Origin: Cognatundibacterium crateris
Lineage (GTDB): Bacteria; Pseudomonadota; Gammaproteobacteria; Burkholderiales; Burkholderiaceae_D
Direction of reading: 5' to 3'
DNA: 64,000 bases
NCBI RefSeq assembly: GCF_010078235.1
Contig: NZ_JAABOS010000001.1
Span: 1 to 64,000, forward strand
In this document: positions 15,179-30,235 of the stretch, piece after piece
How the letters are laid out: each line of letters opens with the position of its first letter
How positions within the stretch are numbered: position 1 is the stretch's first letter
The notes under the pieces: generated by a model
The model's input: the letters and a program-made list of their open reading frames with translations, nothing else
What the model was told of the DNA's origin: nothing
Databases searched by the model: none
Translations under genes and position numbers: made by a program

Positions 15179-15271
15179 AATTAAATCCAATGTTAGACTT
15201 TATTGGCTTTGGGTGAAGTGAAATCAGTAGCAGTGGCATGTGCGTTTTTATGGATGAAAGCGGAGGTGAAT

Positions 15272-15799
15272 ATGGCAGTCAGCATCAAAAAAGGTGGCGA
15301 TAAAATAGGCGGTGGTCCGGTCTTGCCACCGATGTCAGGCCTAGCAGTACGCAGCAAATCTTCATCTGCCACCACTGCTGCAACAGAAAAAACTTCAGCC
15401 AAGGTACTGACGATGCCTTTTCGTGGCAATGTGACCGAAGTGATACACCATATGCGCAATGGGGTCAGTGCTGAACTGGTGCCTGTGATTGCGCGTCAGT
15501 TTGGTATGACGCAGGATGGCTTGTTTGAGCAATTGCGTCTGCCGAAAAGCACCATGAAATCCCGCATCAGTAAAAATGGCTTACTGTCTTCTGCTGAGCA
15601 GGACAGAATGTACCGTGCTGACAGAGTCTGGAAGCGCGCTTTGAGTGTGCTGGAAGATGAGTCGGCGGCACGGCAGTGGATACGCGGCGTCAACCGTGCG
15701 CTGGGTGGCGAAACGCCTTTATCGCTACTCGATACCGAGGCGGGTTATGAGCTGGTGCTCGACACCTTAGGAAGGATAGAGTACGGCGTGGTGTCCTGA
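15272..15799 (+). CDS. Xre/MbcA/ParS-type antitoxin (DUF2384)
   Basis: 175 residues. The region around ELVPVIARQFGMTQDGLFEQLRLPKSTMKSRI is an Xre-like helix-turn-helix, and the C-terminus (ARQWIRGVNRALGGETPLSLLDTEAGYELVLDTLGRIEYGV) is the typical toxin-binding domain that ends many RES antitoxins. The ATG at 15272 is preferred because GGAGGT lies six bases before it; longer in-frame starts reach 15203. The stop overlaps the toxin start by one base (TGATG). It should neutralise the RES toxin and repress its own promoter. Confidence 0.9.
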   Translation: MAVSIKKGGDKIGGGPVLPPMSGLAVRSKSSSATTAATEKTSAKVLTMPFRGNVTEVIHHMRNGVSAELVPVIARQFGMTQDGLFEQLRLPKSTMKSRISKNGLLSSAEQDRMYRADRVWKRALSVLEDESAARQWIRGVNRALGGETPLSLLDTEAGYELVLDTLGRIEYGVVS

Positions 15800-16275
15800 T
15801 GTCGGCGCAACTGGTCTGGCGTATCGCTAAACATACGCCACAATACCGCGCCGATGATTTGAGTGGCGGTGGTGCCAAAGCAGTCGGCGGGCGCTGGAAT
15901 GCCAAGGGTAGTGCGGTGGTGTACAGCGCTTCCAGTATTGCACTCGCGACGCTGGAGACACTGGTGCATCTGGGTGACCAGATCGCGATCCGCAATGCCT
16001 TTCTGGTGCAGATCACCATACCGGCTAAAGTCTGGAAAGAACGCGAAGTGATAGAAGCCAGCGAGCTGGATCCGACCTGGCTGGCCGAGCCACCAGGCTC
16101 CGCCAGTATTGATTTTGGTACGCAATGGCTGCAGGGGATGAGCGCGCCGCTGTTGCTGGTGCCATCCATCATCGTGCCGGAAGAATACAATGTGTTGATT
16201 AATCCCGCCCATGCTGCGGCCAGACAAATCAGCGCGACCGTGAAGCGGCAGTTTATTTACGATCCGCGTTTGTGA
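15799..16275 (+). CDS. RES domain toxin
   Basis: 158 residues with the RES fold. The motif Arg-x-n-Tyr-x-n-Glu is visible as GGRWNAKG (Arg32), VVYSAS (Tyr42) and ATLETL (Glu53), the positions linked to NAD+ binding and degradation in characterised RES toxins. Translation is coupled to the antitoxin. RES toxins deplete NAD+ and can act as stress or phage-response modules; such a role here is inference. The unit sits 2.6 kb from the RADAR genes. Confidence 0.92.
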   Translation: MSAQLVWRIAKHTPQYRADDLSGGGAKAVGGRWNAKGSAVVYSASSIALATLETLVHLGDQIAIRNAFLVQITIPAKVWKEREVIEASELDPTWLAEPPGSASIDFGTQWLQGMSAPLLLVPSIIVPEEYNVLINPAHAAARQISATVKRQFIYDPRL

Positions 16276-18926: not shown

Positions 18927-21752
18927 ATGAGCGACAATAAAGAGAACATCATCTATTTCCCTGTTGATCAGGGCGAACAGGCCAGACAGCCTAAAGCAGA
19001 AAATTTGCTGGCGCGCGATGTGTACAAGCGCATTGCCGATTTATTGGAGCGAAGCGACAAAAAATTAAATGGAAAACTGGACGTTGAATTAGATGATTTG
19101 CGTGCGCATGAAGCCATTCTGATCGATGGCGGCAGAGGCACCGGTAAGAGTTCTATTCTCGTGAATTTACCGCTATACCTGAATCAAGAGCCTGAGCTTA
19201 AGGATAAATTATTGATCCTGAAACCGGTGGACCCTACTTTGCTGGAAGACGGTGATGACTTATTCCTCAATATTATTGTGGCGGCTTTGCTGCGTGATAA
19301 ACAGATTAAAGATGCGCTAAGTCGCGTAGATCATAAAACCGAGGCATTTTATGAGCAATTGCAGCGCCTGGGCACGGCCTTAGAAGGCGTGCAAAAGCAA
19401 AAGAATGAATTTGGTCTGGATAAATTACGTGCATTCATCGGCAATCATGGCATCGCCGATGAAGTCCATAAGTTATTTGGTCTGGCCTTAGGTGTCACAA
19501 ACAAGCGCCTGATAGTCTTACCTATCGACGATGTAGACACTTCATTACAGCATGCGTTTGAAAATCTGGAAGTGGTCAGAAAATATCTTGCTTCGCCATA
19601 CGTAGTTCCTATCATCAGTGGTGATTTAAATCTTTATCGTGATGTGACCTGGCGTGAATTTTATGGACGTATTACCGATAAAGTGAAAGACCATGCAGAA
19701 GGGGTACGCCGTACAGCGAATGAGCTTGCGATCGAATATCAGCGCAAGGTTTTACCTTTACCTCGCCGAGTTAATGTTCCTGACGTGATGGAGTATTTGT
19801 GTAAGAAAGATATTCTGCTTATAAAGGGCGACAAAAAGCTATTGTCATTTGCAGATATGTATGACTTGTTGATATTGATACTAAACGGTGCAGTTAACGG
19901 GCGTGATAACAGTTACCTTGAGCTTCCGGTTTCGTCGGTCAGGGAGTTGTCACAATTGATTATTTCGATTGGCGGTAATCTTGCAGATTTAGCGCCGCAT
20001 TTGAGTAGAAATAAACGTAGTACAGATGCTGTAGAAAATGACGAGGATAAATTAAATGGTGTGGATAAAAATCCTTACTTCGATCAGATACTGAATCAAC
20101 GAACTGTTAACAGTGAGTTTGATAAGTTGTTGAGTCAACTCATAGGAAAGCTTGCAGCCTATTTTTCAATTCACGATAGGGCAGGTGCGGCATATCTGGT
20201 CGTCCAAGCTGACCAATACTGGTACAGAATTTGGGGGGGATCAAAAAAAGAATCAAAAAATAAGTCAGAAGGGCAACCACCAGAACAAAAAACAGCTTGC
20301 CAAAATCCGTTGAACATCCCTTTGTTCGCTCCTCTTTCGCATTCTGCTCATCAATTTTCAATGTTCGAAAAAGAAGATGGTTTAAAAGAAAATTGGAATC
20401 AGCAACTCAAAGAAATAGTACGCAATCCAAAATGGCTACGTGAGCTACCTGAGCAAACTGTTTTGCCTTATCCAAATCTAGATCTGGGAGCGCAAGTGCA
20501 CAGGCAACTGGCATGGCCTGTTAAATCGACAGATCAGGAATTGAAGCGGGACCATTCAGAGTATTTTGATGAACTGTTGCGGCAGTTGTTGATACATGAG
20601 GGATCTTATTCAATTGGGAATGACGCCGTCTTGGTTCAGATTGGACGCATCTTTGAACTTCTTATTGCGAGTTTGACGCAAGATCTTACTGCGGACTATG
20701 TCAAGGATTTGCTGCAAAGGCCACCTTTTTATTCTGCTTCAGCTCTTTCTCTTAATACCACGGGAGCTTTTTTGGTGACAGAGTTTGGAAGTAAAAAAGA
20801 TGCGACGGAGACAAGCGATTTAGTGGAAAACGATAAAAAGAGCGAGAAAATTCGATTTGAAAAATCGATTGATTCGTTTGTTGAAGAAATCAATATCTGG
20901 CGAGAGGGACAAAAGCTGGATCAATTTCGTTTGAGTCCTTGGTTGGTCTACTGTGTGTTTCACAAGCTTTTTACACGTGCGGCTTCAGGAGATTCATCGA
21001 GAGAAAAGGCTTCATCGGAAAAGAAGAACCTATCGCCCCTATACAGAGTCAAATATGATCTAGAAAGCGGCCAACTCAATTATTCGCCGAATGGACACTT
21101 GCCTAAATTTAACTATGTCATAGATGTTGGTATTCGTGCGTTTAATGCAATCTGTGCAGATTTTGGTAGTTTTGAAAAAGGAAGCTTCAGTGGTCAACAC
21201 AAAAAGATCAGTGATAACGAGGTAGGGACAGCATGGAATAATTTTCATAAGGCCTCTTTGTTTACCCAAAATATCAGTCCATTCTTAGAAAATGTGAATT
21301 TCTCTAACGATAGCGATTTCAGTAACACGAAATCAAAATTAGGAGCAGTTGTAGGTAAGCTATACCTTCATCCTTTGGGACAGATGTTGAAGAAATCACT
21401 GAGAGAAAAAGAAGTTGTTGTGATTGATCAACCTTTAAAAAGTCTTCGAGTCCTGTCTCAGGATGAAATTTCAAAGGATGAAATCGCAATGAACAACCTT
21501 TTACGTAGTGAAATTGACGGGGTGTTACTCCAATTTGTTGGCGAAAATTTCAATGAACGTTTGAAGATTTTGTCAGAGCAACCTAAGAACATAAAAGACA
21601 AAGTTAAGACCAGTTTTTTAAGAGGACTTTCTACGACACTTCAAAGGTATCTCAAGGGATATTTAGTAAGTAAGAGTGGAATACACGGCAGTAGTCATTT
21701 GGCTCGATTTATAAAAGCGATAGAACTAGTTCCAAGTGATTTAAATGCTTAA
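18927..21752 (+). CDS. rdrA: RADAR defence ATPase RdrA
   Basis: 941 residues. A P-loop is at 68-76 (GGRGTGKSS) and a Walker B-like strand at about 195-204 (LIVLPIDDVD). RdrA is the AAA+-type ATPase of RADAR; in characterised systems it forms rings that cooperate with the deaminase shell and cause abortive protection from phage. Identification rests on size, ATPase type and strict pairing with RdrB. The ATG at 18927 has only a weak Shine-Dalgarno; a TTG at 18903 is the alternative. The gene overlaps rdrB by eight bases. The second half is visibly richer in A+T than rdrB. Confidence 0.88.
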   Translation: MSDNKENIIYFPVDQGEQARQPKAENLLARDVYKRIADLLERSDKKLNGKLDVELDDLRAHEAILIDGGRGTGKSSILVNLPLYLNQEPELKDKLLILKPVDPTLLEDGDDLFLNIIVAALLRDKQIKDALSRVDHKTEAFYEQLQRLGTALEGVQKQKNEFGLDKLRAFIGNHGIADEVHKLFGLALGVTNKRLIVLPIDDVDTSLQHAFENLEVVRKYLASPYVVPIISGDLNLYRDVTWREFYGRITDKVKDHAEGVRRTANELAIEYQRKVLPLPRRVNVPDVMEYLCKKDILLIKGDKKLLSFADMYDLLILILNGAVNGRDNSYLELPVSSVRELSQLIISIGGNLADLAPHLSRNKRSTDAVENDEDKLNGVDKNPYFDQILNQRTVNSEFDKLLSQLIGKLAAYFSIHDRAGAAYLVVQADQYWYRIWGGSKKESKNKSEGQPPEQKTACQNPLNIPLFAPLSHSAHQFSMFEKEDGLKENWNQQLKEIVRNPKWLRELPEQTVLPYPNLDLGAQVHRQLAWPVKSTDQELKRDHSEYFDELLRQLLIHEGSYSIGNDAVLVQIGRIFELLIASLTQDLTADYVKDLLQRPPFYSASALSLNTTGAFLVTEFGSKKDATETSDLVENDKKSEKIRFEKSIDSFVEEINIWREGQKLDQFRLSPWLVYCVFHKLFTRAASGDSSREKASSEKKNLSPLYRVKYDLESGQLNYSPNGHLPKFNYVIDVGIRAFNAICADFGSFEKGSFSGQHKKISDNEVGTAWNNFHKASLFTQNISPFLENVNFSNDSDFSNTKSKLGAVVGKLYLHPLGQMLKKSLREKEVVVIDQPLKSLRVLSQDEISKDEIAMNNLLRSEIDGVLLQFVGENFNERLKILSEQPKNIKDKVKTSFLRGLSTTLQRYLKGYLVSKSGIHGSSHLARFIKAIELVPSDLNA

Positions 21753-24552
21753 GCCGGAGATTATTCAACTTGGTATCAGCACTTGCTTCTGTAGTTCGGC
21801 TTTCGCTACGCAACTGAAACAACACCTGCTCAGCCCCGACCCATGCCATCTGATGGAGCACAGCCATTTTCACGCTGCCTGTCTGGACGTGTTGCAGGCT
21901 GACCTGGACAGAGACTGGCCGCGGCGTTTTCGTCTAAATGAAATCCGGCATGGTTTGCAAATCGTGTGGCCGCAAACGGCCTTGCGTGGTCCTGCATTCA
22001 GTAGCCTGGATTATTTGTATGAACAGCTGTTTATCGCAGATGGTGATGCGCTGCGTTATCGCGATGGGCAGGAGCAGGATTATGTGCGCTTTTGTGCGCA
22101 GCTCGATCCGGCGCTGGTGGTGGGTTGGAAGTTTGCGCAGCATCTGATGTCGCCGCATAGTCTGACTACCTACGATATGCAGCGCATCGTGGGGCAGCAG
22201 CAGGCTTTGTTCAGTCCGGCTGCAGTCGATGGCAATGCGGTCGCGGAAAATCATGTGCATCTGGGCGGCGTGCATACCAGCGGGCTTGCTTTGTTATTGG
22301 GTGTACTGGCTCCGGATAGCGATCACCTTAAACAGCATCCTCAGCATTCGACTTTGTGCGAACTGCAGCGTGTGCTGCATGGTTTGTTGACGCGCGCGAG
22401 CTGGCTGCCTGAGTCCTATGAGTATGGGGCAGAACCAACATGCGATGCCACGCTCAATTTGCTGCTGCAAGATAGTCTGGGCGAGCGTTGGCGCACCCAG
22501 CCGCAACGGCGTAGCGACTGGCAGTTGATTGCGCAGCAAAGTGTGCATGCCTCAGTGCGCGATCCGGCCTGGCTGCGCCAGCAAATGGCAGTCGCGATGT
22601 TGGCCGGGCGCGTTGCCCAAGCCTGGTTATGGTTGCTGATCTGGCTGTGGCGGCATTATCAAAGTCCGCAATGCCCTTACGCGCTGCGCGTACTCATCAT
22701 TTATTTTTTGAATCGTCTGATGCATTTACGGCGCGAGCTGATTATGGATGGTCAGGGCTTGACGCGCTTCGTGGCTTATTACGACAGGCCATTGCGCTGG
22801 GGTGAGCAGCAACCCAATCATCTGAATGCCGCGCAAGTGCTGTTCCAGCATCCCGACGATGTGGCAGAACTCAAGGTAACGCGTTCCAAATTCAATCCCG
22901 AGGAAATCGGTTTGTGGTTGCGTCAGCTTGCCAGCGCGACTGGCGTGGCTGCGCCGCAGGGGCTGGCGCCTTTGCCTGCGGACGAGGCTGCAGCGTACCG
23001 TACATTGATGGATCGCTGGCATTTCTGCATACATTTTTTACGCATCCCTAAATTCCAACATCATCCGGAACTGGTGTGGCGGGAGGCGCGCCAATTACGT
23101 GAACAATGCCTGTCGCAGGCGGGCTGGGACAGGCCGGAATTGCTGGGCCTGAGCAGCCGTTTTCCGCAGGATATGCGTCGTCAATTGCTGCCGGTGCGCT
23201 GGGTGCGCGGCCTGGATGTGGCTGGCGATGAAAATCTGGTGCGGGTTGAAACCTATGCGCCTGCATTGCGCTGGCTGCGTCAGGGTTTGCAGCATCAGGC
23301 AGAGCGACAGGAGTCTGTCGCGGGCTTGCATTTGAGTGTGCATGCGGGTGAGGACTATGCCCATCCTTATTCCGGCATGCGCCATCTGGATGAAACCGTC
23401 CAGTTTTGCGAGATGCGTTCCGGCGACAGGCTGGGACATGCGCTGGCACTGGGCATACGTCCGCGCGACTGGCTGCAGCGTCATGGTGACATGGTGGTGC
23501 CGGTCGATGAGCATGTCGATAATCTGGTCTGGGCCTGGCATTATGCGGGGGTGATGGCAGAGCGCCTGCCCTTAGCGGCGCAAGTCATGCCTATGCTGGA
23601 GCGACGCATACGGCGCTTTTTGCGCTATGTACCGTGGATGCATCCGGCTTGTCTGGATTGGCTGCAGCCGGGCAGTACTCTGAAAGCAGCGCATGAACAA
23701 TTTGCCTGCAAGGCCGACGCGCATATCACGTGCACCCATCCGGAAACCTTATTCAAAGCCTGGCAGTTACGCCGCAATTGCAGCTGGCAATTGAAGCAGG
23801 CCGAGCTGTCTGGTATTTGTGATGCGGAATCGGCGCAGGCATTACCGGATCGCTATAAGCTGATGAAGCCTTGTACCCCGCCTGCGCAGTTGCAGGGTGA
23901 TGCAAGTACAGCTGAAGCAGCATCGGATTATTTGCCCGATGTACGTTTGTTCCGCGACCGCGCGCGCTGGTTAGATATGCAGAAGGGCGGCAAGCCAGCA
24001 CCGGCCTGGGGTTGTCGCCAGACCCATGCGGCTTTGCCTCAGGTCAGAGTCTCGCTGAGCGGGCCTGAACACAGCGACAGTCGCTGGCAGCAGCAAGCTT
24101 TAAATGCGCTGGGCACCCTGAGCGATCAGCATACGGAAACCGAGCTGGAATTTATGGAAGCTTTGCAGGATTATCTGCTCGATCTGTACGATGCGCGCGG
24201 CTTGATGATAGAGGTGAATCTGACCAGCAATGTGTATATCGCAAGGCTGGAAAGTTTCAGTGAACATCCGGTATTCAGATGGTATCCGGTCTCGGAAAGC
24301 GTGCTCAAACCGGGCGAAGCGGCTAACCGCTTTGGTCTGCGCCGTGGTCCGATCAAGGTCTGCATTAATACCGATGACCCCGGCATCATGCCGACCACAC
24401 TCAGAACCGAATTTGCCTTGCTGCGCGCCGCCGCGATGGAGCATGGCGCCACCCGCACCGATGCCGAAAGCTGGACCGAACGCCTGCGCCAAACCGGCGT
24501 GCAGGAATTCCGCCGTAAACATCAGGCTGTGTGGACCCAGCGTAGCGTGTGA
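21745..24552 (+). CDS. rdrB: RADAR defence adenosine deaminase RdrB
   Basis: 935 residues with a divergent, split metal-dependent adenosine deaminase core: NHVHLGG (His170, His172), LHLSVHAGEDYAHP (His533, Glu536), DRLGHALALG (His565) and NTDDPGIM (Asp877, Asp878). These are the Zn ligands and catalytic residues of the family, separated by long insertions as expected for RdrB rather than for housekeeping deaminases of about 350 residues. Characterised RADAR deaminases convert adenosine in RNA and/or (d)ATP to inosine forms during infection. The start lies within the end of rdrA, so translation is coupled. Confidence 0.92.
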   Translation: MLKPEIIQLGISTCFCSSAFATQLKQHLLSPDPCHLMEHSHFHAACLDVLQADLDRDWPRRFRLNEIRHGLQIVWPQTALRGPAFSSLDYLYEQLFIADGDALRYRDGQEQDYVRFCAQLDPALVVGWKFAQHLMSPHSLTTYDMQRIVGQQQALFSPAAVDGNAVAENHVHLGGVHTSGLALLLGVLAPDSDHLKQHPQHSTLCELQRVLHGLLTRASWLPESYEYGAEPTCDATLNLLLQDSLGERWRTQPQRRSDWQLIAQQSVHASVRDPAWLRQQMAVAMLAGRVAQAWLWLLIWLWRHYQSPQCPYALRVLIIYFLNRLMHLRRELIMDGQGLTRFVAYYDRPLRWGEQQPNHLNAAQVLFQHPDDVAELKVTRSKFNPEEIGLWLRQLASATGVAAPQGLAPLPADEAAAYRTLMDRWHFCIHFLRIPKFQHHPELVWREARQLREQCLSQAGWDRPELLGLSSRFPQDMRRQLLPVRWVRGLDVAGDENLVRVETYAPALRWLRQGLQHQAERQESVAGLHLSVHAGEDYAHPYSGMRHLDETVQFCEMRSGDRLGHALALGIRPRDWLQRHGDMVVPVDEHVDNLVWAWHYAGVMAERLPLAAQVMPMLERRIRRFLRYVPWMHPACLDWLQPGSTLKAAHEQFACKADAHITCTHPETLFKAWQLRRNCSWQLKQAELSGICDAESAQALPDRYKLMKPCTPPAQLQGDASTAEAASDYLPDVRLFRDRARWLDMQKGGKPAPAWGCRQTHAALPQVRVSLSGPEHSDSRWQQQALNALGTLSDQHTETELEFMEALQDYLLDLYDARGLMIEVNLTSNVYIARLESFSEHPVFRWYPVSESVLKPGEAANRFGLRRGPIKVCINTDDPGIMPTTLRTEFALLRAAAMEHGATRTDAESWTERLRQTGVQEFRRKHQAVWTQRSV

Positions 24553-24647
24553 GGCGCTTGCAGGGTGTATGACACATCTGTGGCTGAAGATAAACACAGA
24601 AAACTTCTTAAAAATTTAACTCAAATAAAAAAGAAAAGGGATAAACG

Positions 24648-25394
24648 ATGGCTGAAAACGATTTAGCTGTGAATACGCAGAATCAAAGTGACACCACCGC
24701 GCTTGCGGCAAATGGGGCTGTTGAACCAGTCGCAGATACGGCGGCTGATGTTGCTGTGGTATCGGCGCCAGCACCAGACGCGGGCACCGATTTGGCGCCC
24801 ATCGTTGATCCGGCGCAGCTGGAGGTGCCGTTTAATACTGAGGCGATGGGCTTGATCGCTGCTGCGAAAACCAAACTCTTAGGCGAGATTGATACCTCAA
24901 TCCGCTGGTATGCGGAAAAGGCACCGCAGCGTGGCTTAAAGGCCAGACGTTTGCGGTTTTGGATGATCACCTTTGGTGGCTTGTCTGCTGTCGTGCCTTC
25001 GCTGACGCAGATGCATTTGCCAGAATGGCTGGTTACGTGGATAGGCCCGACGATCTCGCCGATGTGGACCTCGGTACTGATTGCACTGACGGCGACCCTG
25101 TATGCGTATGAACGTTTTTATGGTGACGCTGAAGCCTGGATGCGCTTTGTACTGGCGCAACAACAGTTACAGCGTTTGCGCGAAGAATTTGAACTGAACT
25201 GGCTCACGATACAGGTTTTACGCGTGGGTCAGCCCGATCTGGGTAAGGAAATGGCCGAGCTGATCCGCGTATCCCGCGCACGCCATCGCATCATCCAGCT
25301 CGAGACTGAGCAATGGACAGCGGCGTTTAAGGCTGGTCTGCAAGCGACTACGCCTAAGCAAGTGGAAGAGAAGGGTGCTTCCCCCGAAATTTAG
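24648..25394 (+). CDS. SLATT-type membrane protein, RADAR accessory
   Basis: 248 residues. An Ala/Asp-rich, probably disordered N-terminus (1-65) precedes the SLATT pattern: IRWYAEKAPQRGLKARRLRF, then two membrane segments (about 103-120 and 137-155), then a helix starting AEAWMRFVLAQQQLQRLREE with the conserved Trp and Leu-Arg-Glu-Glu. SLATT proteins are predicted pore formers paired with nucleotide-based defence effectors, and SLATT genes have been noted as ancillary genes in some RADAR loci. AGGGATAA lies before the ATG. It is 95 bp after rdrB on the same strand. Confidence 0.82.
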   Translation: MAENDLAVNTQNQSDTTALAANGAVEPVADTAADVAVVSAPAPDAGTDLAPIVDPAQLEVPFNTEAMGLIAAAKTKLLGEIDTSIRWYAEKAPQRGLKARRLRFWMITFGGLSAVVPSLTQMHLPEWLVTWIGPTISPMWTSVLIALTATLYAYERFYGDAEAWMRFVLAQQQLQRLREEFELNWLTIQVLRVGQPDLGKEMAELIRVSRARHRIIQLETEQWTAAFKAGLQATTPKQVEEKGASPEI

Positions 25395-25677
25395 TTCCCC
25401 AAAGGTGACGTAAAATCAATGACACTTTGGAAAAACAAATGATAAACAGGATACCAAAAGCAGCTTACACGGCCGAGTTTAAAGAACTGGCCGTTAAACC
25501 TGTTTCAGATGGTGAAGCCATCTCTGTAGTTAAAGAAACAAAATCAAGAGAATCTCGCTGCATGACATTCACCTGATGGTGAACTAATTATCTAGTGAAG
25601 ATCACTCTTGCTGATCAATCGAAAAGCGCCGATAAACTCAACAACAATCTTCGGCATATAGCTATAAAAGGAAAGAG
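25395..25677 (+). other. Intergenic region between SLATT gene and Sel1-repeat gene
   Basis: Holds the IS3 OrfA scar. After it there are about 100 bp of AT-rich sequence that must carry the start region of the next gene; no clear promoter or terminator is visible, so it is open whether the next gene is transcribed with RADAR. Confidence 0.5.
25439..25576 (+). pseudogene. IS3-family OrfA transposase remnant
   Basis: The 45-codon frame reads PKAAYTAEFKELAVKPVSDG near its start, which matches the N-terminus of IS3-group OrfA (helix-turn-helix) proteins. It loses similarity after about 33 codons and stops; no OrfB is present and no terminal inverted repeat was found. It lies between the SLATT gene and the Sel1-repeat gene, a scar of an insertion or of island assembly. 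Confidence 0.7.
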
Positions 25678-28524
25678 ATGGACTCATTTACGATTGCTTG
25701 CGACAACATGTTCAGCACTGACGATAACACCGCGCATTTCATCGAGGCCATGTTTAGTGAGAAATTTGATCTCGCTTCTGATTTGCCAGAAATGCTGATC
25801 AGAATTCATCCGGCAAAGAAAACGTTATTTGAACATTTACATCGTGAGAATCTACAAGAAAGACCGGGCTCTGAGAGGAACGTCATCGAGTTCAATGTCA
25901 ATAAATCATCAGGTGGAAGCGAATCTATTCCTTATAGCCGCTTACGAGGCGTGAATCCGAAAAAAGTGATTCGAGAAGTCGACGTTGATGGTTTCGATAA
26001 CAATGCAAATCCTGTTATTCGAGAGCTAGATAATGGTAGCCTGCGTATTGTGTTTTGCAACTTGCCACCAATCTCCTATACAGGTGATTCCGAGTTTGAT
26101 ATGAATGACTTTGGCAGCAAATTGCTAAAGTCTAGCGAAGCCAGAATTATCTGGGAAGATCGAGATGTTTTTTATGTTTCACATCCGATTCCCGAAACGA
26201 TAGATGACATCCAGAAATTCATTCAAAACTATAGCGGCACAAAGAATATTACGACTGCAACTACCACTATCAATTCAAAAAGCAAGGCTCCTTTTTGCGA
26301 ACGTGCGATTGCGTATGTCAAATCGACTCTTGCACCAACCGACACATCCAATTCCCTTGGCACTGTTGACTGCAACTTCTCTCAATTAGTCGATCATCTT
26401 TTTACACTATACGTAGTGGACGAACCACAGGGCTTGGTCTTCATTCAAGACTATCATCTGGAAGCAGAAAATATGTCGCATGAAGCGCTACGTGAAATTG
26501 GTTTGCAAAATTTGCGATCGCTTTTTCAGAAAGAACTCAAGGTCAAAAAAATGGGCGACATCTTCGGGATATTCGTCAACCATAATTTTGAAGCGAGCGG
26601 CCTTTTGTTAGATGAACTCTGGGATCAAATGCTGTGCTCATTGATCGACAACTCTTTTGTGGTGGCCGTACCCTCCCGCGACGTTCTTGCATTTTGTGAT
26701 AGCCAATCAATAGAAGGAATAAAGACCTTACAAGAAGTCGTTCGTCGCACCTACGCTGAACCAGCAAATCCTAACCATCTTCTCAGTCAGGATCTCTATC
26801 AACGTATCGATGGGAAATGGGTAAAATTCAATCCTGCACAGATACAAGATCAACAAGCAGAAGACGATCACTTACAGCAAAAGCTCCGAAAAAATGCGGA
26901 CAAATTGCGTCAGCTCGTCAAAGAAAAAATGAATGTTGAACTCAATTACGACGCCAAAAGCATTGGCTGGATCAACAGCTACATCGACAAACTTAGTGCA
27001 AAAGACGAGCTCAAAAATAAAGATAGCTTAATCCAACTATTGGCAGCATTTTCTGGCGAGTGCTTTGTTCAAAACTATGGTGGAAAATGGTCCACTCAAC
27101 AAGTGGGCGTCGTCTTGAGGATTGGAGATCGAACTATCGACCCATTTCGTTTAGTCCGTCTGCAAATGGAACGCCAGCTTTCCGACAATCTCAGCGTTTT
27201 CAACCTCTATGAAGCAGAAACTGTGCACGATCCACTGGAAAAACAAAAACGCACACACGCTGCGGCGGAAATTCCCGGACTAGATGCAGGTGCCGTTAAA
27301 CGCTATGTGGTGACGCCGCCGCCTTGGATTGCGAAAGACCCACTAAAAAAGCTCTTTGATAATGTGGAAAACCTACTGCAACACGGTCGAATCGTGTGGG
27401 CTACCTTGATACAAGCGAACCGCGTTCTATTTGAATTGGATCCTAAGACTGGCCTAACAGGTGCAGCCGCCGAACTCTTGTATGATCCGACTGGAAATAC
27501 TTCGGTCGAAGACATGCTCCCAGTGAGCAAAAGCATTTTGCAATTGCATTCAGAGAACGTATCGGACCCTGATCTCAACTACATTAAAGATCACCTTAAT
27601 GCAGAAGTGACTCGTCTCTTCGGCCATTCCGTGCCCGCATCCTTGTCATCCAAGGGACTCAAAATGTCGAGCACATGGATAGAGCGTTCCTATTTCCCGC
27701 ATGGCGTTATCGTGCTCCCATATTTTCCGGTGCTAATCTCTGACGACTTCCCAGGCCTGGTTCTGCCAGTGCCGAGTTCGTTCTGGCATCAAGATCTGAA
27801 AGATCAGTGGCTTGAGAATTTACCTCAAACGACATCAAGTCAGAAGCCGCAGCGATATGTTCCGCCTGCCGAGATCGCCCATCTGCATCCATTCAGCTTG
27901 GTTGAAGAAGGTGCCATTTATCTTCTCGGTAATGATTTTCCGCGAGACTATGAAAAAGCGAAGCTCGCCTTCGAGAAAGCAATTTCACAAGGAAGCACGA
28001 GTGCCTATGAGTGGCTAGCAAAAATATACGATGATGGCCTCGGCGTTCTTAAGGACGCTGAACACGCGGCAAAACTCAGAGAGAAAGGAATGGAGTTAAA
28101 TCAACAAAAGAAAGACGCTGAAACTATTAGCGCAAAAACTAATAATCCTGAAGAGAGCAAAACACAAACGCCAGAGGAGCGACTAAAAGTAGAAATCGAA
28201 AAAAATGCCCACGATCCACTGCTACAACTATATCTCACTGGCGTGGCACATTACGAAGGGATTGGTGAAGTCAAGAGTGTCGCGAAAGCTCGTACAATCT
28301 GGCAAAAGGGTGCAAAATTGGGGGACCGTAGTAGCATGTATAGTTTGGGTTGCATCTACTTCTTTGGTGAACTAGACAAAGCAGATCGACGTACTGGAAT
28401 GGGTTATTTTGATGAGGCAGCTAAACGAGGCTGCGAAAACAGCAAACGGCTAATCACCCAACGAAGAAAAACACTACTTGGTTTATACGAATGGGGGTTT
28501 CGTAAGAAGAATCTTATCGACTAA
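25678..28524 (+). CDS. Unrecognised 948-residue protein with C-terminal Sel1-like repeats
   Basis: I do not recognise the first 740 residues. They are hydrophilic, with no signal peptide, membrane segment or P-loop visible; notable stretches are PYSRLRGVNPKKVIREVDVDG (about 81-101), a charged helix around 400-430 and an aromatic/Pro-rich segment YFPHGVIVLPYFPVLI (about 670-686). Residues 748-935 contain Sel1/TPR-like repeats: FEKAISQGSTSAYEWLAKIY, then IWQKGAKLGDRSSMYSLGCI, then FDEAAKRGCENSKRL. Such repeats serve protein contact. AGGAAAGAG precedes the ATG. Base composition is more A+T rich than the flanks. Its place beside RADAR suggests a defence role, which is inference only. Confidence 0.85.
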   Translation: MDSFTIACDNMFSTDDNTAHFIEAMFSEKFDLASDLPEMLIRIHPAKKTLFEHLHRENLQERPGSERNVIEFNVNKSSGGSESIPYSRLRGVNPKKVIREVDVDGFDNNANPVIRELDNGSLRIVFCNLPPISYTGDSEFDMNDFGSKLLKSSEARIIWEDRDVFYVSHPIPETIDDIQKFIQNYSGTKNITTATTTINSKSKAPFCERAIAYVKSTLAPTDTSNSLGTVDCNFSQLVDHLFTLYVVDEPQGLVFIQDYHLEAENMSHEALREIGLQNLRSLFQKELKVKKMGDIFGIFVNHNFEASGLLLDELWDQMLCSLIDNSFVVAVPSRDVLAFCDSQSIEGIKTLQEVVRRTYAEPANPNHLLSQDLYQRIDGKWVKFNPAQIQDQQAEDDHLQQKLRKNADKLRQLVKEKMNVELNYDAKSIGWINSYIDKLSAKDELKNKDSLIQLLAAFSGECFVQNYGGKWSTQQVGVVLRIGDRTIDPFRLVRLQMERQLSDNLSVFNLYEAETVHDPLEKQKRTHAAAEIPGLDAGAVKRYVVTPPPWIAKDPLKKLFDNVENLLQHGRIVWATLIQANRVLFELDPKTGLTGAAAELLYDPTGNTSVEDMLPVSKSILQLHSENVSDPDLNYIKDHLNAEVTRLFGHSVPASLSSKGLKMSSTWIERSYFPHGVIVLPYFPVLISDDFPGLVLPVPSSFWHQDLKDQWLENLPQTTSSQKPQRYVPPAEIAHLHPFSLVEEGAIYLLGNDFPRDYEKAKLAFEKAISQGSTSAYEWLAKIYDDGLGVLKDAEHAAKLREKGMELNQQKKDAETISAKTNNPEESKTQTPEERLKVEIEKNAHDPLLQLYLTGVAHYEGIGEVKSVAKARTIWQKGAKLGDRSSMYSLGCIYFFGELDKADRRTGMGYFDEAAKRGCENSKRLITQRRKTLLGLYEWGFRKKNLID

Positions 28525-28915
28525 TAGTTTTGCGGATCTAAGAGTTTCACAAGCAAGACGACAAATCGAACGTAGGAATTACAAACCTTTGTAGACGCAC
28601 GTGGCGGACTGTCAATGGGGTGAACAGGGTCCTTCGGCAAACTGGAAGCGGTGTTGTCAGGTGCTTGATACTGGAATCGCGAAGCGCTAGATGTCGCGGC
28701 GCTTCGCGTATTTCGGTTGTTTCGTAAAGTCGGTAAATCGCTGTCGCAGGCTGGATCAAAAATAAGACCGGGGTCAAGCTATTACAAATAAACATTTAAT
28801 GAATTTCACCAACACGTGCACTCCAATATCCAGGGCGACGTGACTGATGGGCAACCGCAACAACAATTACTGAAACACACAGGCAGGCGCACAGCCTGCC
28901 GCGAAAAAAACACAT
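28525..28915. other. Intergenic region with two hairpins, right edge of defence island
   Basis: No gene is supported. Two inverted repeats stand out: CGCGAAGCGC / GCGCTTCGCG (28678-28708, 10-bp stem, 11-base loop) and GGCAGGC / GCCTGCC (28882-28900). The first may end transcription from the Sel1-repeat gene, although it lies 150 bp beyond its stop. AATAAGACCGGGGTCAAGC near 28760 resembles sequences seen at the ends of REP-associated transposons, a weak hint of mobile DNA. Confidence 0.5.
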
Positions 28916-28966: not shown

Positions 28967-30235
28967 TCATGCAGCTTTTTTGGCAGCGACAGCTTCCAGA
29001 TGAACCGGTGTTTCTATGCCGTTTTCCCATTTCGCGATCACAGCGGCGGCGATGGAGTTGCCGACGGCATTGGTGGCGGAGCGGCCCATGTCGAGGAATT
29101 GGTCCACGCCCATGATCAGCAACAGACCGGCTTCAGGAATATTGAACTGATTCAGGGTCGCAGCAATCACCACCAGCGAAGCACGTGGTACGCCAGCCAT
29201 ACCTTTGGAGGTCACCATCAACAGCAGCAGCATGGTGATCTGGGTGCTGGTTGAGAGTTCTATGCCGTAAGCCTGAGCGATGAACAACACTGCGAAAGTG
29301 CAATACATCATCGAGCCATCGAGGTTGAACGAGTAACCCATAGGCAGTACGAAGCTGGAGATTTTGCGTTTGACGCCGAATTTGTCCAGTGCATCCAGAA
29401 TCTTAGGATAAGCGGCTTCCGAGCTCGCGGTAGAGAACGCCAGCAGGAAAGGTTCGCGTATCAAAGTCATCAGACGGAAAATCGATTTGCCGAGGAAGAT
29501 AAAGCCTGCGAATATCAGCAGCGCCCACAGGATGCCGAGGCCCGCATAGAAACCTGCCATGAACTTGGCGAAGGTAACCAGCACGCCCAGACCCTGAGTT
29601 GTGATCACCGAAGCCATTGCGGCGAACACTGCTACCGGTGCCATTTTCATGATGGAGCCAGTGATAGTCAGCATCACGTGTGACAATTCATCAATCACGC
29701 CAGTCAGTTTTTTACCGGTTTCACCCATCGCAGCCAGCGCAGAGCCGAAGAACAGCGAAAACACCACGATTTGCAGAATCTCGTTATTTGCCATTGCTTC
29801 CATCGGGGATTTTGGTACCAGATGGTTCACGAATTCCTTGAGCGAGAAAGCGGCGGTTTTCAGATTGGTGGCTGTACCTACTTCCGGCAAAGGCAGATTC
29901 AGGTTGACGCCTAATTGCAGCGCATTCGATAACAGCATGCCGATAGACAGCGAGACCAGCGAGGCGATAATAAACCAGCCCATGGCTTTCACGCCGATGC
30001 GGCCTACCGTCTTGGTGTCGCCCAGATGCGCAATACCGATGGTCAGGGTTGAGAACACCAGCAACGCAATGATCATCTTGATCAGGCGCAGAAAGACATC
30101 GGTGAAAATGGAAAAGTAACCTGCCAGTTCGGTCGCAAATTTGCTGCCGGCCCAGGTTTCATGACAGCCATATCCAACCGCGATACCAGCCAGCATCGCG
30201 ACAAAGATGAGCGGGGTCATCGATTTTTTCTTCAT
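28967..30235 (-). CDS. Dicarboxylate/amino acid:cation symporter (DAACS family)
   Basis: 422 residues, inner-membrane protein with about eight membrane segments and the two re-entrant loops of the family. Signature regions are AFSTASSEAAYP (Ser-rich hairpin), FNLDGSMMY (equivalent of NMDGT), SKGMAGVPRASLVVI and DMGRSATNAVGNSIA. It takes up C4-dicarboxylates or glutamate/aspartate with Na+ or H+. DctA versus GltP cannot be decided by eye. GGAG precedes the ATG; it is a single gene with its own terminator. Confidence 0.92.
   Translation of the reverse strand: MKKKSMTPLIFVAMLAGIAVGYGCHETWAGSKFATELAGYFSIFTDVFLRLIKMIIALLVFSTLTIGIAHLGDTKTVGRIGVKAMGWFIIASLVSLSIGMLLSNALQLGVNLNLPLPEVGTATNLKTAAFSLKEFVNHLVPKSPMEAMANNEILQIVVFSLFFGSALAAMGETGKKLTGVIDELSHVMLTITGSIMKMAPVAVFAAMASVITTQGLGVLVTFAKFMAGFYAGLGILWALLIFAGFIFLGKSIFRLMTLIREPFLLAFSTASSEAAYPKILDALDKFGVKRKISSFVLPMGYSFNLDGSMMYCTFAVLFIAQAYGIELSTSTQITMLLLLMVTSKGMAGVPRASLVVIAATLNQFNIPEAGLLLIMGVDQFLDMGRSATNAVGNSIAAAVIAKWENGIETPVHLEAVAAKKAA

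What the first reader, a model, noticed from the sequence alone, without database searches (positions are those of the whole stretch)
18927..25394. RADAR anti-phage system with a SLATT membrane partner
rdrA (P-loop GGRGTGKSS) and rdrB (split deaminase motifs NHVHLGG, HAGE, DRLGH, NTDDPG) overlap by eight bases, and a two-membrane-segment SLATT-like protein follows on the same strand. RADAR as a family is known, and SLATT genes have been noted beside some members. What is less clear is whether the SLATT protein is an effector pore that senses inosine nucleotides or a membrane dock. The triplet in this lineage would be a good test case.
Basis: partly seen in the sequence, partly recalled or inferred. 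Interest (0 to 1): 0.8.

Follow-up and report, generated by a model that had tools for sequence, protein, structure and literature searches.

The report
RADAR defence with swappable sensor lobe
This is a known type of bacterial anti-phage system (RADAR, with a small membrane partner), but in sister species the presumed phage-sensing part of one protein has been swapped for very different versions while its partners stay nearly identical, which offers a ready-made way to find out what RADAR senses.

Summary
In detail: rdrA 18927-21752, rdrB 21745-24552 (8-base overlap) and a SLATT gene 24648-25394, in an Undibacterium-like genome. RdrA, RdrB and SLATT_2 models score above curated cut-offs. RADAR with SLATT is in print, so the locus is a new member of a known kind.

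The new part is comparative. In U. curvum and U. rugosum CY7W the same locus has RdrB 95% and SLATT 86-88% identical to the window, but RdrA beyond residue ~282 is only ~30% identical, with synonymous sites saturated, against dS 0.16-0.19 in rdrB. Trees of the two RdrA parts conflict. C-terminal classes cross species lines while SLATT follows species (two of five pairings inferred from equal contig lengths). In 7 of 9 swap-like pairs, Aeromonas included, identity drops at residues 282-293, the end of the AAA+ core, before the lobe that Duncan-Lowey et al. proposed as sensor. E. coli shows no such exchange. SLATT stays with RdrB, so it seems to belong to the effector side; pore or dock remains open. 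The fourth gene (25678-28524) lies in a window-only insertion.

The parts
18927..21752 (+). rdrA, AAA+ ATPase of RADAR, 941 aa
   Evidence: NCBIfam NF041743 799.7 bits, cut-off 600; PADLOC RdrA E 8.7e-175
18927..19769 (+). rdrA core module, residues 1-281: AAA+ core including the region that forms the RdrB-docking crown in E. coli RADAR; ends with the conserved motif EYQRKVLPLPRR (residues 270-281). Shared with U. curvum and P0008, itself replaced in CY7W and P0009
   Evidence: 94% aa identity to U. curvum up to the change point at residue 282; 70% to CY7W and 77% to P0009 over residues 41-245; profile aligns to E. coli RdrA 8fnt residues 72-315; crown docking from PMC9994260 section 11
19762..21817 (+). 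exchanged segment: rdrA lid plus C-terminal lobe, running into the first ~24 codons of rdrB
   Evidence: No DNA match to U. curvum here, about 92% on both sides; synonymous sites saturated
21745..24552 (+). rdrB, adenosine-deaminase-type RADAR effector, 935 aa, catalytic motifs intact
   Evidence: NCBIfam NF041744 980.8 bits, cut-off 800; motifs; PDB 8fnw/8hr7 relatives E 5.8e-20
24648..25394 (+). SLATT_2 accessory protein, 248 aa; model helices 64-119, 139-158, 160-191, 198-233; residues 1-61 low confidence
   Evidence: NCBIfam NF033633 59.3 bits, cut-off 40; AlphaFold mean pLDDT 67 from 8 sequences
25380..28866 (+). window-only insertion between SLATT and the flanking carrier-like gene; 250-300 bases stand in its place in U. 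rugosum and U. curvum; holds orf4
   Evidence: blastn breaks at 25379 and 28867
25678..28524 (+). orf4, DUF1444 + Sel1 protein, 948 aa; not judged part of RADAR
   Evidence: Pfam; not found in the matching loci of U. rugosum, U. curvum and G633
28967..30235 (-). flanking gene shared by these loci; membrane carrier of the dicarboxylate symporter type by appearance (not tested against a family library)
   Evidence: 99% identical in U. curvum, 98% in U. rugosum, 88% in G633

Best explanation
A three-gene RADAR locus. By homology, RdrA heptamers dock through their N-terminal crown on the RdrB dodecamer and switch on RdrB, which turns (d)ATP into (d)ITP during infection (shown for E. coli RADAR in print, inferred here). 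The RdrA lid and C-terminal lobe (residue ~282 to the end) is an exchangeable recognition module: homologous recombination replaces it with strongly different versions of the same domain, using the conserved AAA+ core and the start of rdrB as anchors, while RdrB and SLATT stay as a constant chassis (mosaic: shown; recombination as its cause: strongly supported; that the lobe sets phage specificity: inferred). In some alleles (CY7W, probably P0009) the exchange takes nearly the whole of rdrA, from about codon 20-38 in CY7W. SLATT is a membrane accessory of the RdrB side, most likely an effector that acts on the membrane once RADAR fires (inferred, weak).
For: RADAR identity. Exchange: window versus U. 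curvum dS 0.17 (rdrA codons 41-245) and 0.19 (rdrB from codon 25), but synonymous differences 0.78, saturated, in rdrA from codon 286; DNA borders near 19760 and 21817. Tree conflict in 34 RdrAs: the N-terminal tree unites window, curvum and P0008 (SH-aLRT 99), the C-terminal tree unites window with P0009 (100) and curvum with P0008 (99); AU tests reject the other grouping on each side, p 0.0057 and 2.6e-55 (groups named after the identities were seen). Same SLATT, different lobe: CY7W and P0001 SLATT 98%, lobes of CY7W and P0008 32%; U. curvum and P0002 SLATT 97%, lobes of U. curvum and P0009 29%. Recurrence: of 125 pairs with N-terminal identity of at least 85%, 9 have lobes under 45%, 7 of the 9 with a change point at 282-293 (the pairs share members, so they are not 9 separate events). 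Lobes keep common landmark residues (G573, R574, E577, P600, S603, W658, H815, P816 invariant in 46 sequences). Crown docking and the C-terminal sensor hypothesis: PMC9994260.
Against: No functional data. Two of the five SLATT-RdrA pairings rest on equal contig lengths (682743, 511855), not on DNA that I read. SLATT itself is more diverged at synonymous sites (dS 0.39-0.52) than rdrB (0.16-0.19), so the chassis is not perfectly uniform. E. coli shows no exchange: of 23 genomes with a match among 5426, 21 carry the whole query rdrAB at 99.9-100% and 2 only the rdrB tail (near-identity search, other E. coli RADAR alleles not covered). In three pairs from other lineages with RdrB 73-78% identical, the lobe follows at 62-68%. 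P0013/P0014 does not reject sisterhood on the lobe (p 0.105), so that pair may be fast divergence. Over all 181 pairs with N-terminal identity of at least 80%, change points at 240-259 (42), 340-359 (27) and 820-839 (51) are more frequent than at 280-299 (23). The exchange could be neutral rather than selected for recognition.
Confidence: 0.62

Rival explanations
1. The lobe diverged in place under strong positive selection, without exchange between lineages.
For: Immune proteins often evolve fast; the RdrA lobe is generally less conserved than the AAA+ core (PMC9994260). P0013/P0014 may be such a case.
Against: Between window and U. curvum, synonymous sites are saturated only inside the segment, beside dS 0.17 and 0.19; DNA similarity ends and resumes abruptly; lobe and core trees conflict.
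Confidence: 0.05
2. Lobe exchange is real but neutral: a recombination-prone locus where divergent RADARs can donate, with no change in what is sensed.
For: No selection on specificity was measured; the neighbouring interval after SLATT also turns over.
Against: RdrB next door stays at 95%; change points recur near one domain border in Undibacterium and Aeromonas pairs; lobe classes are shared across species.
Confidence: 0.25
3. SLATT is a membrane dock or regulator that places the RADAR complex at the membrane, not an effector.
For: SLATT is found only on one RdrB branch and follows it; another multi-TM family, RdrD, takes the same place in three other loci.
Against: [quoted passage not shown] Two-gene RADAR protects without a membrane protein (PMC9994260), so docking is not generally needed.
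Confidence: 0.3
4. SLATT is unrelated to RADAR and only sits next to it.
For: A 95-base gap separates rdrB and SLATT; two-gene RADAR works without it (PMC9994260).
Against: Same strand and place in 5 of 5 loci on this RdrB branch; in the genus, present in exactly the 5 genomes of 43 that have RdrB; no + strand terminator-like site between the two genes.
Confidence: 0.12
5. orf4 (DUF1444-Sel1) is a fourth RADAR gene.
For: Same strand, 283 bases after SLATT.
Against: Not found in the matching loci of U. rugosum, U. curvum and G633; lies in a window-only insertion, GC 44.6% against 54.0% for the window.
Confidence: 0.04

Closest known systems
RADAR (RdrA-RdrB), E. coli / C. rodentium / S. suis types
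   Same: Tandem rdrA-rdrB, AAA+ core with Walker motifs, split deaminase with intact motifs; family models above cut-off
   Different: Sequence distant from the solved E. coli proteins; carries SLATT; RdrA lobe is exchanged between sister species, which I saw in none of the four RADAR papers held
RADAR variants with a SLATT or Csx27 membrane protein (Gao et al. 2020, as cited in PMC11676413)
   Same: A SLATT gene beside rdrAB
   Different: Nothing categorical; this SLATT_2 type has no PADLOC hit and is not NCBIfam RdrD
Type I restriction HsdS target-recognition domains (recalled, no call)
   Same: Exchangeable recognition module on a constant catalytic chassis, exchanged by recombination in conserved borders
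   Different: Unrelated proteins; recognition target of RdrA unknown; only an analogy of behaviour
NLR-type immune receptors such as ROQ1 (compared with RdrA in PMC9994260)
   Same: P-loop core with a C-terminal region thought to sense
   Different: In ROQ1 sensing is by a leucine-rich repeat domain; the RdrA lobe is helical and its sensing role is not demonstrated

Membership tests
RADAR | RdrA AAA+ ATPase by family model | tested here: met
   NF041743 799.7 bits, cut-off 600
RADAR | RdrB adenosine deaminase by family model | tested here: met
   NF041744 980.8 bits, cut-off 800
RADAR | Intact Walker A/B, sensor 1 and deaminase catalytic motifs | tested here: met
RADAR | rdrA and rdrB in tandem on one strand | tested here: met
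   8-base overlap
RADAR | (d)ATP to (d)ITP conversion on infection, supramolecular assembly | not testable with these tools
   needs biochemistry
SLATT (SLATT_2) | Family model above curated cut-off | tested here: met
   Pfam 27.5 vs 25; NCBIfam 59.3 vs 40
SLATT (SLATT_2) | Two transmembrane helices and a cytosolic helical part | tested here: inconclusive
   AlphaFold helices fit, mean pLDDT 67; my simple hydropathy scan called no TM segment in the window copy, one in L072 and two in L003
SLATT (SLATT_2) | Pore formation | not testable with these tools
   prediction in print only
RADAR accessory RdrD (NF041745) | Family model match | tested here: not met
   no match in G000; 3 of 30 genomes with an RdrB match have one, each beside rdrB

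The most novel reading that the evidence does not exclude
RADAR is a modular recognition system: the lid and C-terminal lobe of RdrA are trans-species allele classes, exchanged by recombination (alone from a fixed domain border, or together with the AAA+ core) onto a constant RdrB/SLATT chassis, so that sister strains sense different phage triggers with the same ATP-deaminating effector and the same membrane partner.
Probability: 0.5. Interest if true: 0.75.

Novelty: new member of a known kind. Interest (0 to 1): 0.6.

Why it matters
What RADAR senses is an open question stated by its structural authors, who hypothesised that the uncharacterised RdrA C-terminal domain is the sensor. Natural alleles that differ in that domain, on 95% identical RdrB, are a clean experiment for it: three lobe classes, one chassis. 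The same set suggests that SLATT does not have to match the lobe, which narrows the search for its signal to RdrB, its products or the RdrA core.

Tried and rejected
Fourth gene as a RADAR component: rejected, it lies in a window-only insertion. A short open stretch 25439-25576 after SLATT looked like the start of an IS3-type transposase by recalled motif, but Pfam gave no match, so I leave it unnamed. Empty-site test: in G662, a genome without RADAR and with an 84% identical carrier gene, the other side of the site showed no match to the window, so no clean empty site was shown. Mobile origin: no RdrB match in 50,697 phage records, none confirmed in viral contigs (pattern-limited); 7 of 72,556 plasmid records hold distant RdrB relatives. 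E. coli as a population test of the swap: negative. SLATT_5 Pfam model in the own genome: no match, uninformative. SLATT relatives in the PDB: none.

Rows dropped. RdrB family searches gave matches in 50 genomes; I went on with 30 and left out 20 whose best match was weak (E 1.3e-6 to 8.5e-4; most looked like ordinary adenosine deaminases). Several of the 30 are themselves weak or partial, and in some no RdrA was found in the stretch read. P0100 left out before alignment, 126 sequences left, 7750 of 7875 pairs passed my overlap limits; searches use the best 120 of 567 proteins plus 7 more. One search uses 34 of those 126. One search uses 32 RdrBs over 600 aa; L074 and L075 (short pieces) and 4 duplicate loci were left out; L004, L067 and L080 have only 925, 497 and 346 bases after rdrB and L064 begins inside rdrB. 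The MAG copy of rdrB (L003/L021) has an in-frame stop early in the matched stretch, so it may be broken or misassembled.

My own errors: one search stopped with an error at L075 after printing the earlier loci (redid the downstream survey); the home-made RdrD profile held a mis-framed L070 row and is not used (NCBIfam results are used instead).
Full report
What is there. The window lies in a 4.31 Mb, 42-contig genome (G000) whose closest named relatives at this locus are Undibacterium. On the + strand, rdrA (18927-21752, 941 aa), rdrB (21745-24552, 935 aa) and a SLATT gene (24648-25394, 248 aa) follow each other; rdrA and rdrB overlap by 8 bases. RdrA and RdrB score 799.7 and 980.8 bits against NCBIfam models with cut-offs 600 and 800, SLATT_2 59.3 against 40. 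Walker and deaminase motifs are intact. The solved RADAR proteins are the only significant PDB sequence relatives: RdrB to 8fnw, 8hr7 and 8fnv, RdrA to 8fnt and 8hr7.

What is already known. RADAR converts ATP and dATP to ITP and dITP; RdrA docks on RdrB almost entirely through a helical crown on its N-terminal AAA+ domain, and the authors hypothesise, without direct evidence, that the C-terminal helical lobe senses phage (PMC9994260: outline, parts 1 and 2 of 9 of the text, section 11 and found passages seen). A review states that some RADAR variants carry a SLATT or Csx27 membrane protein (PMC11676413, passages). [quoted passage not shown] Two further reviews were seen in passages and say nothing of SLATT. 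The primary RADAR paper of 2020, the Csx27 paper, the SLATT paper and the second structural paper of 2023 are not held. So RADAR with SLATT is not new.

SLATT distribution. By handle number all 43 were in the RdrB searches, which found RdrB in the same five. In each, SLATT directly follows rdrB. Among 30 genomes with an RdrB match (20 weaker ones left out, see Tried and rejected), SLATT_2 occurs in 8, but beside rdrB only in these 5; the other 3 hits lie on other contigs. The accessory family RdrD follows rdrB in 3 of 30 (two of the three below the model's cut-off). The second RADAR of G633 (L068) has neither. In a tree of 32 RdrBs the five SLATT-bearing ones form one branch (SH-aLRT 99.8, a quick tree with long branches elsewhere). 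This fits one gain of SLATT on this RdrB branch.

The exchange. Window, U. curvum and U. rugosum CY7W are collinear at about 88-93% DNA identity on both sides of the locus. RdrB is 95% and SLATT 86-90% identical among them. RdrA is not: against U. curvum it is 94% identical up to residue 282 and 27% after it. DNA similarity stops near 19760 and resumes at 21817, in rdrB codon 25. dS is 0.17 in rdrA codons 41-245 and 0.19 in rdrB from codon 25, but synonymous differences reach 0.78 (saturated) in rdrA from codon 286; the first 40 codons and codons 246-285 stand between at 0.38 and 0.40, and SLATT at 0.39-0.52. In CY7W the replaced stretch begins earlier, at about codon 20-38 of rdrA, and ends at the same place in rdrB. 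Fast amino-acid change in place would not saturate synonymous sites in one segment only; replacement by recombination would. All three rdrA genes are GC-poor, the lobes most (GC3 44-49% before codon 282, 34-38% after, rdrB 62%).

Allele classes. Two further alleles came from the protein search: P0008 (a second U. rugosum RdrA) and P0009. Lobe identities (window residues 286-941) give three classes: window and P0009 (55%); U. curvum and P0008 (79%); CY7W (P0017) and P0015 (82%); between classes 25-34%. The N-terminal part (41-245) groups otherwise: window-curvum 98%, window-P0008 89%, window-P0009 77%, window-CY7W 70%. Trees of the two parts in 34 sequences conflict, and AU tests reject the alternative grouping on each side (p 0.0057 for window+P0009 on the N-terminal part; 2.6e-55 for window+curvum+P0008 on the lobe; groups were chosen after seeing identities, so the p values are not strictly a priori). 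SLATT follows another pattern: CY7W and P0001 98%, U. curvum and P0002 97%, the window 86-88% to all four. P0001 shares its contig length (682743) with P0008, and P0002 (511855) with P0009, so I infer, but have not read, that these are neighbours. If so, near-identical SLATT genes stand beside different lobes in two species, and lobe classes cross species lines.

How general. Among 126 RdrAs, 7750 pairs compared, 125 pairs have N-terminal identity of at least 85%; 9 of these have lobes below 45%, including an Aeromonas veronii / A. jandaei pair (94% and 37%). The 9 pairs share members and stand for fewer events. A single-change-point fit puts the drop at window residues 282-293 in 7 of the 9, and at 250 and 347 in the others. 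That border lies just past the conserved motif EYQRKVLPLPRR, maps to about residue 308 of E. coli RdrA, and is close to where the profile match to the E. coli protein ends (residue 315; a second, weak stretch at 695-755 also scores). By the published numbering, Walker A, Walker B and sensor 1 (D253) lie before the border, sensor 2 (R377) and the lobe after it. Against generality: in 3 pairs of other lineages with RdrB 73-78% identical the lobe follows at 62-68%, though two further pairs, L061/L068 and L062/L068, show 43 and 41% with RdrB at 79 and 73%; 21 of 23 matching E. coli genomes carry one nearly unvarying allele; P0013/P0014 does not reject sisterhood on the lobe; and over all 181 pairs with N-terminal identity of at least 80% other change points are more common.

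Mechanism. Shown: the RADAR and SLATT identities, the mosaic and its borders, SLATT staying with RdrB. Inferred: that the N-terminal crown docks on RdrB as in E. coli; that the lobe is the recognition part; that exchange is selected because phages escape recognition; that SLATT acts on the membrane downstream of RdrB. SLATT residues 150-190 are identical in the five closest copies and hold 18 of the 48 positions invariant among eight sequences, for example W164, M165, R166, F167, R176, E179, which makes this stretch a candidate contact or ligand face. The model is only of moderate confidence (mean pLDDT 67). Pore and dock are both open; I lean to effector at about 0.4 against dock at 0.3.

Literature check for the exchange. 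Searches for RADAR with RdrA and RdrB (4 papers), with recombination and C-terminal (2 papers), with sensor (4 papers) and for hypervariable sensor domains in anti-phage systems (8 papers, listing and abstract starts only) gave nothing on exchange of the RdrA lobe in what I saw. Several key papers are not in the library, so I cannot say it is absent from print as a whole. Low general conservation of RdrA outside the ATPase core is in print (PMC9994260).

Noticed in passing
window 15203-16275: RES/Xre toxin-antitoxin pair (NCBIfam Xre_ParS 100.7 bits, Res_ParT 158.4 bits), a few genes upstream of RADAR, inside the stretch collinear with U. curvum.
   Followed up: partly
P0100 (1530 aa, longest contig 4975 bases): One open frame joins RdrA (profile 1-682 of 742) to RdrB (profile 78-850): a possible natural RdrA-RdrB fusion lacking the end of the lobe and the start of RdrB, or an assembly artefact.
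   Followed up: partly
L068 and L072 (both genome G633): One genome, probably U. squillarum, carries two RADAR loci of different RdrB branches, one with SLATT and one without SLATT or RdrD.
   Followed up: partly
window 24850-25090: The first helix region and loop of the window SLATT (about residues 68-135) differ from the other four close copies; DNA identity falls to 76-81% at 24900-25099.
   Followed up: no
L003 / L021 (MAG, G754): The rdrB copy has an in-frame stop early in the matched stretch; broken or misassembled, not pursued.
   Followed up: no
L005 12598-14637: A 679-aa same-strand gene directly follows rdrB in Vibrio sp. SCSIO 43135; not identified.
   Followed up: no
H29, H30 (E. 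coli ET826, ET881): Two E. coli genomes match only the last 770 bases of the query rdrAB, apparently remnants of a lost RADAR.
   Followed up: no
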